NCBI RefSeq assembly: GCF_000202835.1
Contig: NC_015186.1
Coordinates: forward strand, 3,257,501-3,321,500
Origin: Acidiphilium multivorum AIU301
Lineage (GTDB): Bacteria; Pseudomonadota; Alphaproteobacteria; Acetobacterales; Acetobacteraceae
Length of the DNA stretch: 64,000 nt
Direction of reading: 5' to 3'
The notes under the pieces were generated by a model that made no database searches, had not been told where the DNA came from, and was given only the letters and a program-made list of their open reading frames with translations. Every line of letters begins with the position of its first letter. The first letter of the stretch is position 1. This document shows positions 16,265-23,212 of this stretch, in pieces. The translations under genes and the position numbers were made by a program.

Positions 16265-16427
16265 CGCCCTGTACCCCCTTTGTAACTTTTTTTGACCCCC
16301 GGACCCTATGGTCACCTCGCCGCGAGGGCAAGGCTTTTTGTGCGCTGCGGCAAAAATCGCCCCCCGCTTCACCCCGCGCCCGTTCTGCGCGACAACCGGC
16401 CCGATCACCGCGAGGGAAGAGGAGTCC

Positions 16428-18098
16428 ATGAGCCAGCCGCGCACGACCGCACCCGCCGTTACCTGTTTCGGCCCCGATTTCCCTTTCGCCTATGACGACT
16501 GGCTGTCCCACCCCGCCGGCCTCGGCGCGCTGCCCGAAGCCGCGCACGGCGCCGAGGTCGCGATCATCGGCGCCGGCATCGCCGGCATCGTCGCCGCCTA
16601 CGAGCTGATGAAGCTCGGCCTCCGCCCCGTCCTCTACGAGCAGGGCCGTCTCGGCGGCCGCCTCCGCTCCGAGCGTTTCGCCGGCGCCGAGGATGTCATC
16701 GCCGAACTCGGCGGCATGCGCTTCCCCACCTCGTCGCGCGGCTTCTACCACTATCTCGACCTCGTCGGGCTCGACACCGCGCCCTTCCCGAACCCGCTCT
16801 CGCCGGCCTCGCCGAGCACCGTGATCGACCTCGAGGGCACCACGACCTATATCGAGGGCACCGGCCCGCTGCCGCCCTTCTTCGCCGAGGTGCAATCCGC
16901 CTGGGCCGAGGCTTTGGAGCAGCAATCCGGCTTCGCCGCCCTGCAGGCGGCCCTCCGCGCGCGCGACGTCGCCGCCCTGAAATCGCTGTGGAACCCCATC
17001 GTCGCCGCCTGGGACGAACGCACCTTCTACGATTTCGTCGCCTCCAGCCCCGCCTTCGCCCGCCTGTCCTTCCACCACCGCGAGGTCTTCGGCCAGGTCG
17101 GCTTCGGCACCGGCGGCTGGGATTCCGACTTCCCGAATTCCATGCTCGAAATCCTCCGCGTCGTCCTCACCGAGCTCGAGGACGACCAGCGCCTCGTCAT
17201 CGGCGGTGTCGAGCAGCTGCCCCGCCGCCTCTGGGCCCACGCGCCGTCGCGCCTCGTCCACTGGCCCGCCGGCACCACGCTGTCGGCGCTGCACAACGGC
17301 GCGCCGCGCCCCGGCGTCGCCCGCCTCGCCCGCGCGCCCGACGGCGCCATCGCCGTCACCGACCGCTGGGGCCACGAGCGCCGCTACGCCGCCGTCCTCT
17401 CCACCTGCCAGACCTGGCTGCTCACCACCGCGATCGAGACCGACGAGCGCCTGTTCTCCCAGAAACTGTGGATGGCGCTCGACCGCACCCGCTACATGCA
17501 GTCCTCGAAAACCTTCGTGATGGTCGACCGCCCCTTCTGGCGCGACCGCGACCCCGTCACCAACCGCTATCGCATGTCCTGCACCCTGTCGGACCGTCTG
17601 ACCCGCGGCACCTACCTGTTCGACAACGGGCCGGACCGCCCGGCCGTCATCTGCCTCTCCTATTCCTGGATGAGCGATGCGCTGAAGGTCCTTCCCCTGC
17701 CGCCGGAGCGCCGCGTCGCCCTCATGCTCCGCGCCCTCTCCGCCATCTACCCGGATGTCGACCTGCCCGCCCGCATCATCGGCGATCCCGTCACCATCTC
17801 ATGGGAGGCCGACCCCGGCTTCCTCGGCGCCTTCAAGGGCGCGCTCCCCGGCCATTACCGCTACAACCGCCGCATGTACTGCCACTTCATGCAGGACGAC
17901 CTGCCGCCCGAGCAGCGCGGCCTCTTCCTCGCCGGCGACGAAATCTCCTTCACCCCGGCCTGGGCCGAGGGGGCGGTGCAGACCGCGCTCAACGCCGTCG
18001 GCGGCATCGTCCGTCATCTCGGCGGCGCCGCACCGGCGGCGAATCCCGGCCCCGCCGAATCCTTCGCCGCCCTCGCCCCCGTCGAGCTCCCCGAATGA
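16428..18098 (+). CDS. L-lysine 2-monooxygenase-like flavin amine oxidase (DavB-like)
   Basis: 556-aa FAD amine oxidase of the tryptophan/lysine monooxygenase group, which turns an amino acid into its amide (lysine to 5-aminopentanamide for DavB). Visible: the dinucleotide fold VAIIGAGIAGIVAAYELMK at 44-62, LGGRLRSE, AELGGMRFP, FGTGGWDSDFPNSMLE, RYMQSSKTFVMVDRPFW and the C-terminal FLAGDEISFTPAWAEGAV. From memory these blocks and the opening FGPDFPFAYDDWLSHPAGLG match Pseudomonas DavB better than IaaM. The partner amidase DavA is absent here. RBS GAGGAG precedes ATG 16428. Substrate is inferred, not proven. Confidence 0.8.
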   Translation: MSQPRTTAPAVTCFGPDFPFAYDDWLSHPAGLGALPEAAHGAEVAIIGAGIAGIVAAYELMKLGLRPVLYEQGRLGGRLRSERFAGAEDVIAELGGMRFPTSSRGFYHYLDLVGLDTAPFPNPLSPASPSTVIDLEGTTTYIEGTGPLPPFFAEVQSAWAEALEQQSGFAALQAALRARDVAALKSLWNPIVAAWDERTFYDFVASSPAFARLSFHHREVFGQVGFGTGGWDSDFPNSMLEILRVVLTELEDDQRLVIGGVEQLPRRLWAHAPSRLVHWPAGTTLSALHNGAPRPGVARLARAPDGAIAVTDRWGHERRYAAVLSTCQTWLLTTAIETDERLFSQKLWMALDRTRYMQSSKTFVMVDRPFWRDRDPVTNRYRMSCTLSDRLTRGTYLFDNGPDRPAVICLSYSWMSDALKVLPLPPERRVALMLRALSAIYPDVDLPARIIGDPVTISWEADPGFLGAFKGALPGHYRYNRRMYCHFMQDDLPPEQRGLFLAGDEISFTPAWAEGAVQTALNAVGGIVRHLGGAAPAANPGPAESFAALAPVELPE

Positions 18099-18213
18099 CG
18101 CCGCCCCGCTCACCATCCCGTCATCCGCCGCTGACATAAGCTCCCGCCGCCCCTACGTGACGCTCCGCGCCCGGCATCAGGGGCCGGCGCGCCACGGAGA
18201 ACGGAGCAAAAAC

Positions 18214-18867
18214 ATGGATCTGGCCTTCGCCGCGCGGTTCCTGGGGGCGTTCTTCGCCATCATGAACCCCTTCGTCACCCTGCCGATCTTCCTGTCGATG
18301 ACGGCGGACCGCACCGTCGCCGAACAGCGGTCGATCGCCCTGCAGGTCGGCACCTACAGCACGGTGATGTGCATCGTCATCGCCGTCGCCGGCAACGCGA
18401 TCATCGGCTTCTTCGGCATTTCGATCGACGCCTTCCGCGTCGCCGGCGGCCTGGTCCTGCTCGGCATCGCCTTCTCGATGCTGAACGGCCACCCGATCAC
18501 CGCGCACGAGCGCGGCGACCACGAGAAATCCGCCGACTCCGCCGCCGATGCGGCGGACGACGCCGAGGGCGGCATCGCCTTCTACCCGATGACCTTCCCC
18601 CTCGTGGTCGGCCCCGGCACCATCGCCACCCTGATCATCTATGCCGGGCAGGCCCGCGGTGTGCCGGAATACGTCGCCCTCGGGCTGATCACCGCGCTGC
18701 TGCTCGCGGTGCTGATCGTCGTCCTCTACTTCGCCGCCTCGATCGGCCGGCTGCTCTCCGCCCGGATGCGCGTGGTCATGACCCGCCTGATGGGCATGAT
18801 CCTCGCCGCCATCGCCGTCGGCATGGTCACCGCCGGCCTGAAGATCCTGCTCCCCGGCCTCACCTGA
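18214..18867 (+). CDS. MarC family integral membrane protein
   Basis: 217 aa with about six transmembrane helices. Family marks: AIMNPFVTLPIFLSMT near the N-terminus, FRVAGGLVLLGIAFSML, and FYPMTFPLVVGPGTIATLI in the middle, followed by a C-terminal LMGMILAAIAVGMVTAGLK helix. A charged, acidic cytoplasmic loop (HEKSADSAADAADDAEGG) separates the two halves. MarC proteins (UPF0056) have no established substrate. The YdhR-like gene begins 26 nt downstream. Confidence 0.93.
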   Translation: MDLAFAARFLGAFFAIMNPFVTLPIFLSMTADRTVAEQRSIALQVGTYSTVMCIVIAVAGNAIIGFFGISIDAFRVAGGLVLLGIAFSMLNGHPITAHERGDHEKSADSAADAADDAEGGIAFYPMTFPLVVGPGTIATLIIYAGQARGVPEYVALGLITALLLAVLIVVLYFAASIGRLLSARMRVVMTRLMGMILAAIAVGMVTAGLKILLPGLT

Positions 18868-18893
18868 GGCCCCGCGAACCGCACAGGAGCCCC

Positions 18894-19214
18894 ATGCGCG
18901 CCATCCTCTCCGTCCGGATTTCCTCGCCCCTGCCGGCCGACGAACTCGTCCGCCGCATGAACGCCCGCGCCGCGGACTTCGCCGCCGTGCCCGGCCTCGT
19001 CCAGAAATCCTTCGGCCTCGACCCGCTCAGCGGCGACATCTGCGGCATCTACATCTTCGAAACCCGCGCCGCCCTCGAAGCCTACCGCGCCAGCCCCCTC
19101 GCCACCTCGATCCCCGCCGCCTACGCGGCGACGGAGATCCGCCGGGAAATTTTCGATCTGGTCAACCTCGTGCAGGCGCAGAGCGCCGGGGCGCCGAGGG
19201 CGGAGCCGTCATAG
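18894..19214 (+). CDS. YdhR-like small ABM-fold protein
   Basis: 106 aa from ATG 18894, with AGGAG 6 nt upstream. The sequence shows a ferredoxin-like alpha+beta pattern: ILSVRISSPLP, a helix rich in Arg/Ala, VPGLVQKSFGLDPLSGDICG, IYIFETRAALEAYRAS. This is the pattern of YdhR/antibiotic-biosynthesis-monooxygenase-like dimers, in which monitoring loss or turnover of the substrate is undefined. Its stop overlaps by 6 nt with the stop of the interrupted gene on the other strand, marking the edge of the accessory patch. Confidence 0.75.
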   Translation: MRAILSVRISSPLPADELVRRMNARAADFAAVPGLVQKSFGLDPLSGDICGIYIFETRAALEAYRASPLATSIPAAYAATEIRREIFDLVNLVQAQSAGAPRAEPS

Positions 19215-19464
19215 ATTTTGTGACTTGGCCGTGTTGCTAACCAGGTTCACGTGCTGTTTGCCGCCGAACATTGTCGAACGACAGAAAAGGCAGTCGAACA
19301 CGAGGATTTCGGGATCGATCTTCTTCACCTCGGCGAGCGCGGTCGACAGTGTCATGTCCGACTTGAACATGCGGTTTCTGACGGTCAGGACGGACGAAAA
19401 CTTGTGGCTGTATTTGCTCTTATGCATTTTGGCATATGCGGAAGAAGATTTGTCCGCCACCTTC
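19209..19464 (-). pseudogene. 3' fragment of the IS-interrupted gene
   Basis: C-terminal 84 codons plus stop (TGA at 19209-19211) of the gene whose 5' part lies at 20553-20974. Deleting the IS and one target copy joins the halves in frame, creating an ATG (Met) codon exactly at the junction, followed by KVADKSSS. The fragment contains VLTVRNRMFKSDMTLS and ILVFDCLFCRS, with a closely spaced cysteine pair, and ends AKSQNL. Codon use is clearly less GC-rich than in neighbouring genes. No function is recognised for this half. Confidence 0.8.
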
Positions 19465-19472
19465 ATTCGATC
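19465..19472. repeat. Left target-site duplication ATTCGATC
   Basis: The 8-bp direct repeat ATTCGATC directly abuts the left end of the IS and recurs at the right end (20553-20560). Eight base pairs is the expected duplication length for the IS1595 family. Confidence 0.95.
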
Positions 19473-19488
19473 CTTGCCTATCCGGTTG
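19473..19488. repeat. IS left terminal inverted repeat
   Basis: CTTGCCTATCCGGTTG, identical to the reverse complement of 20537-20552. The adjoining 20 or so bases (ACCCACACC.ACTA.AT.TAG) still match the other end imperfectly. Confidence 0.93.
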
Positions 19489-20505
19489 TTACCCACACCC
19501 ACTAAATGTAGGGTGTGTCCATTCCCCGGAATAAAGCTCGTCAAAGGTTGGTGCGGCTGCCCTACCCGCGATTCCGAGCAGCGAGCGGAACGCGTTGAAG
19601 GGATAGAGGCGCCGGTTGAACCGAAACGTGAATTCATTGAGGTAGGCTTGTAGATGTTTGGCGCTGACCCCGTGATGGATGCCGTTGATCCAGGTCTTCA
19701 GGTTGGTAAAGACCAAGTGGACGATCGGCAGGAATTCTTCTGCCACCTCCGGGTCGCCGCATTCGGCGATTGCATGGTGGTCGAACCCGCGCCTTCCGAG
19801 ACCGGCATAGCCGCTCCAGTCGTCGGTAACGATCAGCGATCCGGGAGCAACGGCGTTTTCGACGAATCCGCAGAGCGAATTGGCGCTACGGTCGGGGACA
19901 ACAGCGAGACGAACGCGTCCCGCGTAGCGACCGTCTTTCCGATTGTCGAGCTTGGTTCCCGGTTTCCGGTGGCGCACCTCCACGGCACAGGCGACGAGAA
20001 CCTTGTGATGGACACCCCGTCCATCGCCTCGGGTTCGTCCTCCAACCCACGTTTCATCCACTTCGACGTGTTCTTGCGGCGTGTCGCCAATCTTGTCGCG
20101 CTCGGGGCGCACCATCCCGGCGCGCAGCTTATGAAGGATGCCGAAGGCGGTCTCGTAGCGCGACAGGCCGAGTTGCCGCTGAAATTGGACGGCCGACATT
20201 CCGGGCGTCTGGCTGGCGATCAAGTAAGCCGCCCAGAACCAAGTCGACAGCGGCGTGTGACTGCGTTCCATAACGGTCCCAGCCATCAGGCTTACGTCTT
20301 TGCGACAGGCCCGGCAGCGCAGAACGCCCGGGCGCGCCTCGAAACGGAACGGCTCGCCAACGACGCCGCACCTTGGGCAGGCGAACCCTCCATTCCAGCG
20401 GGCGCTTTCGAGATAGGCGGCACAGGCCGCGTCGTTCGGGAAAATACGCTGGAATTCCGGCAGAGACTGCGGGAACGGCAGGTCTTCACGGGCCAGGACA
20501 TCCAT
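19489..20505 (-). CDS. IS1595-family (ISXO2-like) transposase
   Basis: 338 aa from ATG 20505; a GTG at 20514 is an alternative. An N-terminal zinc ribbon (CPRCG and CRACR, spaced about 25 residues) is followed by the ISXO2-like DDE-type catalytic core: first acid in VDETWVGG, second in VTDDWSGY, and the third region HLVFTNLKTWINGIHHG, then SAKHLQAYLNEFTFRFNRR. Complete with no internal stops. The TAA stop lies immediately inside the left inverted repeat, which is normal for compact IS elements. Confidence 0.95.
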   Translation of the reverse strand: MDVLAREDLPFPQSLPEFQRIFPNDAACAAYLESARWNGGFACPRCGVVGEPFRFEARPGVLRCRACRKDVSLMAGTVMERSHTPLSTWFWAAYLIASQTPGMSAVQFQRQLGLSRYETAFGILHKLRAGMVRPERDKIGDTPQEHVEVDETWVGGRTRGDGRGVHHKVLVACAVEVRHRKPGTKLDNRKDGRYAGRVRLAVVPDRSANSLCGFVENAVAPGSLIVTDDWSGYAGLGRRGFDHHAIAECGDPEVAEEFLPIVHLVFTNLKTWINGIHHGVSAKHLQAYLNEFTFRFNRRLYPFNAFRSLLGIAGRAAAPTFDELYSGEWTHPTFSGCG

Positions 20506-20536
20506 GCCCAACACTAGATCTAGTAGGTATGGGAGT

Positions 20537-20552
20537 CAACCGGATAGGCAAG
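20537..20552. repeat. IS right terminal inverted repeat
   Basis: Sixteen bases (CAACCGGATAGGCAAG) forming a perfect inverted match to the left end at 19473-19488. Confidence 0.93.
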
Positions 20553-20560
20553 ATTCGATC
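20553..20560. repeat. Right target-site duplication ATTCGATC
   Basis: Exact copy of 19465-19472, directly next to the right IS end. Confidence 0.95.
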
Positions 20561-20974
20561 GTCCAAAAAATTATAGTCTTTAAAATTTTGATTGATGGTT
20601 TGGGCGATGGAGTCATATGTCTCCCCCATCTCGTTGTTGCCCTTGCCCTGATATTTGGTCAGGATGTAGTCGAAACATGATTCGCCCTCGCTAACGAGTT
20701 CTTTCACGGCGCCGACGCTGTGGTAGAAGCTGCTGAATCCGGGGTCGACAACCGAATATGTATCTTCGGAGTAAAACCGCAGCACCGTATTGCTGGGTAC
20801 GGTGAAAATGTTGGTCTTCGTCAGCACCGTATGTCCGCCATGGGCGGTGATGATGCACGTATTCGTCCCGATCTTGGGCTTGAAATAATATAGCTGATCG
20901 CCGAGTTCGTAGATGTCGAGCCCTCCCCGCTCGGTGACTTTGGTCATCTTCGTCTTCGAATCAAAAATGCCCAC
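20553..20974 (-). pseudogene. 5' fragment of the IS-interrupted gene, possible Stv-like domain
   Basis: N-terminal part of a protein of about 225 aa before insertion. I chose the GTG at 20974 because AAGGGAG lies 9 nt upstream; a TTG at 20998 would add 8 residues. The sequence has CIITAHGGHTVLTKT, then FTVPSNTVLRFYSEDTYSV and DPGFSSFYHS. That HGG/FTVP/FY/DPG pattern recalls the putative adhesin Stv domain seen in some bacterial toxin and effector proteins, but I cannot confirm it. The frame is open up to the IS. Lower GC than its surroundings suggests horizontal origin. Confidence 0.75.
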
Positions 20975-21249
20975 GATCTGAAACTCCCTTCCGGTCAAGC
21001 CGGCAGAAATTGAACGAATATTGAAAATCTGACGCCTTTATCTAGGCTATTCGCGAAACCAAAAGCCGGGTGGTGACGGCCGGAGCACTCGTTCGCGCCG
21101 AGCGGCCGATGGTAGCGACAGCGAAACGGGTTCATCGCACATATGATTTTTACCTTGACCCGCAGTGCCGACAAGTGTCCCGCGTCACACAACCGATGCG
21201 GAGAAAAAACGATTGCCCACCCCCGCCCCTCCATGGTCTTCTGCGCCGC

Positions 21250-21811
21250 ATGAACCTGGCCGCCCGCTTCGCCGCGATCATCCAAGGCCTCTGCGCCGCA
21301 GTCGCGAGGCGCGGCGCTAACGGGGCGTTCGTGCGCGAAACGTCGCGTCGCGGCTCGGCCTTCGCCGACCCGCACGCCCTGACCGTCCTGCTCTGGTCCC
21401 GCCTGCAACGCGCCGTCGCCCGCTTCGCCCGCCTCGCCGCCGGCGCCCCGCCGCCGCGCCCGCGCCCGCACACCCCGCGCCCGGCCCGCGCCCGCAGCGC
21501 GCCGGACCTGCCGCGCCGCCGGGGCTGGCTGCTCGCCCCGGTGCCCGAAGCCACCGCCGCCGCCTCGCAACTCCGCGCCTTCCTCGCCGAACCCGAAACC
21601 CGCGCCCTCATCGCCGCCGAACCCCGGCTCGGCCGCATCCTCCGCCCGCTCTGCCGCACCCTCGGGATTTTGCTCCCCGCACCGCAATCTCGCGCCCGCC
21701 GCCCCCGCGCACCCGGCGCCCCGGTCGCCGCCGACCCGCCGACCCGGCCGCACCGCCCGGCCCGGCACGTATCCGCTCCGCCGCCCGCGCGCCCCGCCCG
21801 CGCCCGCCTGA
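21250..21811 (+). pseudogene. Hypothetical Pro/Arg-rich protein, probably frameshifted at its 3' end
   Basis: From ATG 21250 the frame opens MNLAARFAAIIQGLCAAVA, then ALTVLLWSRLQRAVARFARLA, a proline/arginine-rich stretch and LRAFLAEPETRALIAAEPRL, GRILRPLCRTLGI. I recall similar hypothetical proteins of about 200 aa in Acetobacteraceae. In this frame there is no stop until 22659, deep inside antisense gltX, which is implausible. The +1 frame stops at 21811 after RRPRAPPAPA, so a frameshift after about 21660 would give a normal end. No clear RBS. The first 135 codons look coding; the remainder is uncertain. Confidence 0.4.
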
Positions 21812-21877
21812 CCGGGCAAGCCATCCGTTTTCCGCCCGCCCGACGGCCCCGCCGCCGGACGCATCCGCGCGCGCCGA

Positions 21878-23212
21878 TTACCCCGCGGCGCGTTCCAGTC
21901 GCGCCGCCGCCCGCGCCCGGCCGATCAGCGGCAGCAGCGCCGCCAGTTCCGGCCCGTGGCTCTCCCCGGTCAGCGCCAGCCGCAACGGCAGATACAGCGC
22001 CTTGCCCCGCGCCCCGCTCGCCGCCGCCACCGCCCCGGTCCATCCCTTCCAGGTCGTCTCGTCCCACGGCTCCGGCGGCAACGCCTCCAACGCGGCGCGC
22101 AGCAGCGAAGCCGCCTCCGGCAGCGACGGCGTCTCGATCTCGCCGCTCACCACCTCCCGCCACAGCCGCGCCTCCGACAGCAGGTCCAGGTTCCCCCGCA
22201 CCGCCATCCAGAATTCTGCTCCGCACCCCTCGGGCAGGCGCTCGGCCACCGCCTCGAAAGGCAGCCCATGCAGCACCCGCCGGTTCAGCGCCAGCAACTG
22301 CTTCGGATCGAAGCGCGGCGCCCCGCGCGAGAAATCGCCAAGGTCGAACGTCCCCGCCAGCTCCTCCAGCGTCAGCGGCTCCGGGTCGCGCCGGCTGCCC
22401 AGCCTCGCCAGGTAAGAGACCAGCGCCATCGCCTCGATCCCGTCGCGCCGGAACTGCCGCACCGAAACGCTCCCCGCCCGCTTCGACAGTTTTTCGCCCG
22501 TCACGTCCGAAATCAGCGGTAGATGCCCGAACGCCGGCACCGCCCGCCGCGGCTCCAGCGCGCGCATCAGGTCGATCTGCACCGCCGTGTTGGTCACATG
22601 ATCCTCGCCGCGGATCACATGCGTCACCCCCAGCTCCAGATCGTCCACCACCGAGGTGAACGTATAGAGCGGCGTACCGTCGGCGCGGATCAGCACCGGG
22701 TCGGACACGGTGCCGAGCACCACCTCCCGCCGGCCCAGCACCAGGTCGTTCCACGCCACCGCCCCGTCCGACAGCTTGAACCGGAAATAGGGCCGCTTGC
22801 CGCCCGCCTCCGCCGCCGCGCGCTGCTCGGCCGTCAGGCTCAGCATCGCCCGGTCATACACCGGCGGCAGATGCCGCTTCGCCCGCAGCGCCCGCTTCGC
22901 CGCGAGCTCCTCCTCCGACTCGAAACACGGATAGAGCAGCCCCGCCGCCTTCAGCCGCTCCGCCGCCGCCGCGTAGCGGTCCATCCGGTCGGACTGCCGC
23001 GCCATCTCGTCCCAGCCGATGCCGAGCCAGCGCAGGTCCTGCTCGATCCCCGCCTCGTATTCCGGCTTCGACCGCTCGCGGTCGGTATCGTCGATGCGCA
23101 GCAGCAGCGTCCCGCCCATCGCCCGCGCGGCGAGGGCGTTGACCACCGCGAGCCTCGCATTGCCCGCGTGCAGATGACCGGTGGGGGAGGGTGCGAAACG
23201 GAACTTGACCAT
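21878..23212 (-). CDS. gltX: Glutamate--tRNA ligase
   Basis: 444-aa class I aminoacyl-tRNA synthetase. Catalytic signatures: FAPSPTGHLHAGNARLAVVN (HIGH-like) at residues 6-25, LLLRIDDTDRERS, and the KMSKS-equivalent EKLSKRAGS near 240. Also HVIRGEDHVTNTAVQ. Shorter than E. coli GltX (471 aa). Alphaproteobacteria often carry two GluRS copies, one for tRNA-Gln; which one this is cannot be told here. Divergent from the MFS gene; the start ATG 23212 gives the canonical MVKFRFAPSPTG N-terminus. Confidence 0.95.
   Translation of the reverse strand: MVKFRFAPSPTGHLHAGNARLAVVNALAARAMGGTLLLRIDDTDRERSKPEYEAGIEQDLRWLGIGWDEMARQSDRMDRYAAAAERLKAAGLLYPCFESEEELAAKRALRAKRHLPPVYDRAMLSLTAEQRAAAEAGGKRPYFRFKLSDGAVAWNDLVLGRREVVLGTVSDPVLIRADGTPLYTFTSVVDDLELGVTHVIRGEDHVTNTAVQIDLMRALEPRRAVPAFGHLPLISDVTGEKLSKRAGSVSVRQFRRDGIEAMALVSYLARLGSRRDPEPLTLEELAGTFDLGDFSRGAPRFDPKQLLALNRRVLHGLPFEAVAERLPEGCGAEFWMAVRGNLDLLSEARLWREVVSGEIETPSLPEAASLLRAALEALPPEPWDETTWKGWTGAVAAASGARGKALYLPLRLALTGESHGPELAALLPLIGRARAAARLERAAG

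What the first reader, a model, noticed from the sequence alone, without database searches (positions are those of the whole stretch)
19209..20974. IS1595-family insertion that can be removed exactly to restore one open frame
The sequence shows perfect 16-bp IS ends and an 8-bp duplication (ATTCGATC). Deleting 19473-20552 plus one duplication rejoins codon 141 of the 5' part to the 3' part in frame, with an ATG codon formed at the seam; the restored protein is about 225 aa with no internal stop. This indicates a very recent insertion, before the remnant gene could decay.
Basis: partly seen in the sequence, partly recalled or inferred. Interest (0 to 1): 0.75.

Follow-up and report, generated by a model that had tools for sequence, protein, structure and literature searches.

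The report
Known jumping gene inside foreign gene
A known mobile DNA element of acid-mine bacteria has jumped, apparently not long ago, into the middle of a rare, probably foreign gene and split it; the event is ordinary, though the broken gene may code for a secreted, weapon-like protein.

Summary
Window 19473-20552 is a complete 1080-bp insertion sequence with perfect 16-bp ends and an 8-bp target duplication. It is the known element ISAcr1 (IS1595 family). The genome matches Acidiphilium multivorum AIU301; 23 identical copies were found and 23 of 23 have exact 8-bp duplications. Taken apart, both gene pieces match Pfam PF21527 (Stv; the 3' piece just below the cut-off) and align to neighbouring, non-overlapping parts of one intact relative, so one gene was split. 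Recency is well supported (identical copies, matched duplications, open pieces) but not dated. No uninterrupted copy was found; 12 of 12 genus mates gave no match. The gene is 50-51% GC beside 70-72% GC genes and lies in a lineage-specific block. Pfam calls the domain a 'putative adhesin', but relatives carry it in front of a VgrG-like type VI spike and at the C-end of a protein annotated as RHS, so the gene may encode a secretion-system cargo. I did not read it as one protein. Overall: an ordinary insertion by a known element.

The parts
19473..20552 (-). ISAcr1, complete 1080-bp IS1595-family element (transposase on the - strand, same direction as the split gene)
   Evidence: 23 identical full-length copies in own genome (40 of 65 candidates scored); PGAP label 'IS1595-like element ISAcr1' on 100% identical plasmid copies
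19473..19488 (.). terminal inverted repeat, 16 bp
   Evidence: sequence and script
20537..20552 (.). terminal inverted repeat, 16 bp
   Evidence: sequence and script
19465..19472 (.). 8-bp target duplication ATTCGATC, left copy
20553..20560 (.). 8-bp target duplication ATTCGATC, right copy
19489..20505 (-). IS1595 transposase, 338 aa from ATG 20505 (the ORF can also start at GTG 20514)
   Evidence: DDE_Tnp_IS1595 137.3 bits, Zn_ribbon_IS1595 53.4 bits; NF033547 201.3 bits, cut-off 75; start as annotated on identical copies
20553..20974 (-). 5' piece of the split gene, Stv domain (PF21527); carries the invariant His-Gly and Pro
   Evidence: 46 bits, cut-off 24.2; aligns to residues 11-106 of an intact relative; invariant H, G and P
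19209..19472 (-). 3' piece of the split gene (with one copy of the duplication); carries the invariant Cys
   Evidence: Stv 20.2 bits, below cut-off 24.2; aligns to residues 111-160 of the same relative
16357..21869 (.). lineage-specific block (amine oxidase, MarC, YdhR-like gene, split Stv gene with ISAcr1, GC-rich repeated segment) between pyruvate carboxylase and glutamyl-tRNA synthetase
   Evidence: in two relatives, G004 and G010, the two flanks lie about 0.9 kb apart; an OmpA-family gene lies between in G004; gene names

Best explanation
ISAcr1, an active or recently active IS1595-family element, transposed into codon 141 of a probably horizontally acquired, low-GC, single-copy Stv-domain gene in Acidiphilium multivorum. 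It duplicated 8 bp and split the gene so that the invariant His-Gly lies in one piece and the invariant Cys in the other. What remains upstream reads on into the IS and stops at 20486 (162 aa from GTG 20974), without the Cys part, so the gene is most likely dead. Shown: element, ends, duplication, copy number, open pieces, collinearity with a relative. Inferred: recency, foreign origin, loss of function, and that the gene worked before insertion.
For: Perfect ends and duplication. 23 identical copies, 23 of 23 with exact 8-bp duplications, at 23 different sites. IS1595 models met. Identical copies on pACRY02, pACRY03 and CP084173. The pieces match one family and align to residues 11-106 and 111-160 of one intact relative. 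Pieces 50% and 51% GC, YdhR-like gene 70%, gltX 72%. One Stv match in the own genome.
Against: No uninterrupted copy or empty site was found: 1 of 100 genomes searched, the own one, has the 5' piece, and searches found none. The 3' piece alone is below Pfam's cut-off. At the junction about 36 of our residues lie unaligned where the relative has 4, so homology does not cover the junction itself. Identity among copies could also be kept by gene conversion.
Confidence: 0.93

Rival explanations
1. The gene was already non-functional or unexpressed foreign DNA when ISAcr1 landed, so the insertion marks tolerated AT-rich DNA rather than a meaningful knock-out.
For: The 23 sites have mean flank GC 48.6% against 71.6% for 192-bp stretches of this window, as expected if insertions survive mainly in foreign or dispensable DNA. 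No match to the 5' piece in 12 of 12 genus mates.
Against: Neither piece has a stop or visible frameshift; the invariant H, G, P and C are kept; a ribosome-binding-like GGAAGGGAG precedes GTG 20974.
Confidence: 0.35
2. The insertion is old and the element looks young only because copies homogenise by recombination.
For: Recombination between ISAcr1 copies does seem to happen: pACRY03 keeps one copy with the left flank of one site and the right flank of another.
Against: Such recombination mismatches the duplications; here 23 of 23 match. The pieces remain open.
Confidence: 0.08
3. Assembly artefact: a repeated element placed at the wrong site.
For: 23 identical copies make misassembly conceivable.
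Against: The genome is listed as complete (PMC7677001, passage), and each copy has its own matched duplication, which a misjoin would not make.
Confidence: 0.02

Closest known systems
ISAcr1 (IS1595 family), Acidiphilium
   Same: 100% identical over 1080 bp to copies on A. cryptum JF-5 plasmids pACRY02 and pACRY03 and on CP084173, labelled ISAcr1 in those records
   Different: only the insertion site
Pfam PF21527 (Stv, 'putative adhesin Stv domain')
   Same: 5' piece over the family cut-off, 3' piece just below; invariant H, G, P and C kept
   Different: stand-alone short protein, split by an IS; longer linker at the split
Stv-VgrG-like fusion of Pseudomonas sp. HMWF032 (L082; its Stv part is identical to L076)
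   Same: 32% identity to the 5' piece and 32% to the 3' piece
   Different: there the domain stands in front of Phage_GPD, Phage_base_V and Gp5_trimer_C domains (the name VgrG for this set is recalled)

Membership tests
IS1595 family (ISAcr1) | transposase of IS1595 type | tested here: met
   NF033547 201.3 bits, cut-off 75; PF12762 and PF12760 over cut-off
IS1595 family (ISAcr1) | terminal inverted repeats | tested here: met
   16 of 16 bp perfect, at 19473-19488 and 20537-20552
IS1595 family (ISAcr1) | 8-bp target duplication (length recalled as typical of the family) | tested here: met
   23 of 23 copies
IS1595 family (ISAcr1) | same element as named ISAcr1 | tested here: met
   100% over 1080 bp to copies annotated ISAcr1; the ISfinder entry itself was not seen
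IS1595 family (ISAcr1) | catalytic residues of the transposase | not tested
   no residue-by-residue check was made; only the profile matches
IS1595 family (ISAcr1) | transposition activity | not testable with these tools
   only inferred from identical copies at different sites
Stv domain family PF21527 | profile match over curated cut-off | tested here: inconclusive
   5' piece 46 bits: met; 3' piece 20.2 bits against 24.2: not met alone; the pieces were not joined
Stv domain family PF21527 | invariant His-Gly, Pro and Cys of the relatives | tested here: met
   invariant in the alignment of 6 relatives; H, G, P in the 5' piece, C in the 3' piece
Type VI secretion effector or cargo | fused to or encoded with a type VI part | tested here: inconclusive
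   this gene is stand-alone; a relative is fused to spike domains, another sits at the C-end of a protein annotated as RHS; the host has two VipB matches and one Phage_GPD match elsewhere
Adhesin (the Pfam label) | surface attachment role | not testable with these tools
   no paper with 'Stv domain' or 'putative adhesin Stv' in the held library

The most novel reading that the evidence does not exclude
The 'putative adhesin' Stv domain is not an adhesin but a cargo or effector domain of type VI and RHS-type systems with an invariant His and Cys pair (perhaps a cysteine-dependent hydrolase), and ISAcr1 has just switched off the only copy seen in Acidiphilium by cutting between the two.
Probability: 0.25. 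Interest if true: 0.45.

Novelty: already known. Interest (0 to 1): 0.2.

Why it matters
It is a clean case of a gene cut by a known element, with 22 sister copies that show its duplication rule, its liking for (or survival in) AT-rich DNA and, on pACRY03, what looks like the recombination scar of two copies. If the Stv reading is right, a family filed as 'adhesin' would need re-labelling.

Tried and rejected
Looked for an uninterrupted copy with the 5' piece in 100 related genomes, genome contigs, plasmids by protein and by DNA, phages and viral contigs: only the own genome matched. The tools state that records very near the window's genome may be left out, and the genome sets hold one genome per species, so other A. 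multivorum or A. cryptum chromosomes could not be tested. The family is rare in the samples: 3 of 385 class genomes and 5 of 398 phylum genomes, the own genome counted in both. With the Stv part of L082 as query, viral contigs gave nothing and plasmids one Pantoea record.

Full report
What is there. The 1080 bases at 19473-20552 are a complete insertion sequence. The ends are perfect 16-bp inverted repeats and the element is bracketed by ATTCGATC on both sides. The transposase (19489-20505, minus strand) passes Pfam's IS1595 zinc-ribbon and DDE models and NCBIfam's IS1595 model at 201.3 bits against a cut-off of 75. Plasmid records with 100% identical copies over the whole length are annotated 'IS1595-like element ISAcr1', so the element is already known.

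Host. The window lies in a genome of 4,214,744 bases in 9 contigs, on a contig of 3,749,411 bases. A table row seen in PMC7677001 gives 3,749,411 for Acidiphilium multivorum AIU301, listed as complete, with 8 plasmids and 4.21 Mb (passages seen only). This is an acid-mine bacterium. A passage of the same paper counts 841 transposon sequences in this strain, the most among the genomes studied there.

Copies and age. The search of the genome found 23 identical full-length copies and one of 73% identity (40 of 65 first-look candidates were scored). Of the 23, 23 have exact 8-bp duplications and the 23 sites differ. Copies at 88% occur in two genus mates, G006 and G011 (4 candidates scored per genome). 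Identical copies sit on A. cryptum JF-5 plasmids pACRY02 and pACRY03 and on CP084173. This points to recent spread. On pACRY03 the one copy has mismatched flanks: the left flank of the first and the right flank of the second of two direct copies that stand 252 bp apart on G000:C1 and on CP084173. That is the scar expected from recombination between two copies, and it shows what a matched duplication argues against.

Target sites. The 192-bp flanks of the 23 sites average 48.6% GC, against 71.6% (SD 5.3) for stretches of this window; for the 11 chromosomal sites the mean is 49.7%, reached by 0 of 100,000 random draws from the window. The background is this window alone (a value of 67.0 in the table row of PMC7677001 I read as the strain's GC; the column heads were not in the passage), and survival in dispensable DNA would give the same picture as true target choice. 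Base counts at the 23 sites suggest roughly W-N-GWWYRWWS-N-W, though single sites are not palindromic beyond column composition.

The split gene. The 5' piece matches PF21527 (Stv) at 46 bits and the 3' piece matches the same family at 20.2 bits, below the cut-off of 24.2. Compared apart with one intact relative (L076, whose domain is identical to that of L082), the 5' piece covers its residues 11-106 and the 3' piece its residues 111-160. Order, strand and coverage fit one gene cut in a stretch of variable length: about 36 residues of ours lie unaligned where the relative has 4. The reading from the 5' piece into the IS ends at 20486, so a truncated product would lack the Cys part.

Origin of the gene. 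It is 50-51% GC, against 70% for the YdhR-like gene on one side and 72% for gltX on the other. The family search of the own genome gave one match (the weak 3' piece did not ring, so a fragment elsewhere could be missed). The 5' piece had no match in 12 of 12 genus mates, 4 of them under 90% complete; in all 1 of 100 genomes, the own one, matched. The family is rare in the samples: 3 of 385 class genomes and 5 of 398 phylum genomes, own included in both. Of ten loci around gltX in genus mates (L060 to L069), two, from G004 and G010, have gltX and pyruvate carboxylase about 0.9 kb apart instead of the 5.5-kb block of this window; three have DNA like window 4.2-5.2 kb next to gltX; in five the roughly 1.5 kb held beyond gltX matched nothing in the window. 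The gene thus lies in a variable, lineage-specific block.

What the gene may do. In the alignment of six relatives a His-Gly, a Pro and a Cys are invariant; the first three are in the 5' piece and the Cys in the 3' piece. In Pseudomonas sp. HMWF032 the domain precedes Phage_GPD, Phage_base_V and Gp5_trimer_C domains, a set that I recall as VgrG, with a VRR-NUC gene next. In a Pantoea agglomerans plasmid it is the C-terminal end of a protein annotated as RHS (no RHS model passed at E 0.001). The host has two VipB matches and one Phage_GPD match elsewhere. This suggests a secretion-system cargo rather than an adhesin, at low confidence. A structure model of the relative was poor and found nothing. 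In the held library no paper has 'Stv domain', 'putative adhesin Stv' or 'ISAcr1'.

Verdict. The element and the mechanism are known; interest is low.

Noticed in passing
L089 2001-3080 (pACRY03); L039 (G000:C1:161635-164246); L087 12001-14412: pACRY03 carries a single ISAcr1 at this place with mismatched flanks, the expected product of recombination between two direct copies that are both present on G000:C1 and CP084173.
   Followed up: yes
L087 (CP084173.1 21278-46357): A plasmid filed under Acidithiobacillus ferrooxidans YQ-N3 is pACRY03-type Acidiphilium DNA in the 24.9 kb (of 79.7 kb) examined: 99% covered at 99.9%. Transfer between classes, or carry-over from a mixed culture.
   Followed up: partly
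window 21185-21889: A GC-rich segment of about 700 bp recurs in this genome; best other copies 92% and 91% at G000:C6:2089371-2090036 and 2573727-2574437 (36 matches of the query in the own genome, itself included). No Pfam match for 21250-21870.
   Followed up: partly
window 16357-21869: Variable interval between pyruvate carboxylase and gltX: different content in different genus mates.
   Followed up: partly
window 19209-19214: The split gene and the convergent YdhR-like gene overlap by six bases at their stop codons.
   Followed up: no
L082 4001-8158: Stv domain on the N-side of a VgrG-like protein, followed by a VRR-NUC gene; four further loci, three of Pseudomonas sp. and one of a Gammaproteobacteria bin, carry a close Stv domain.
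   Followed up: partly
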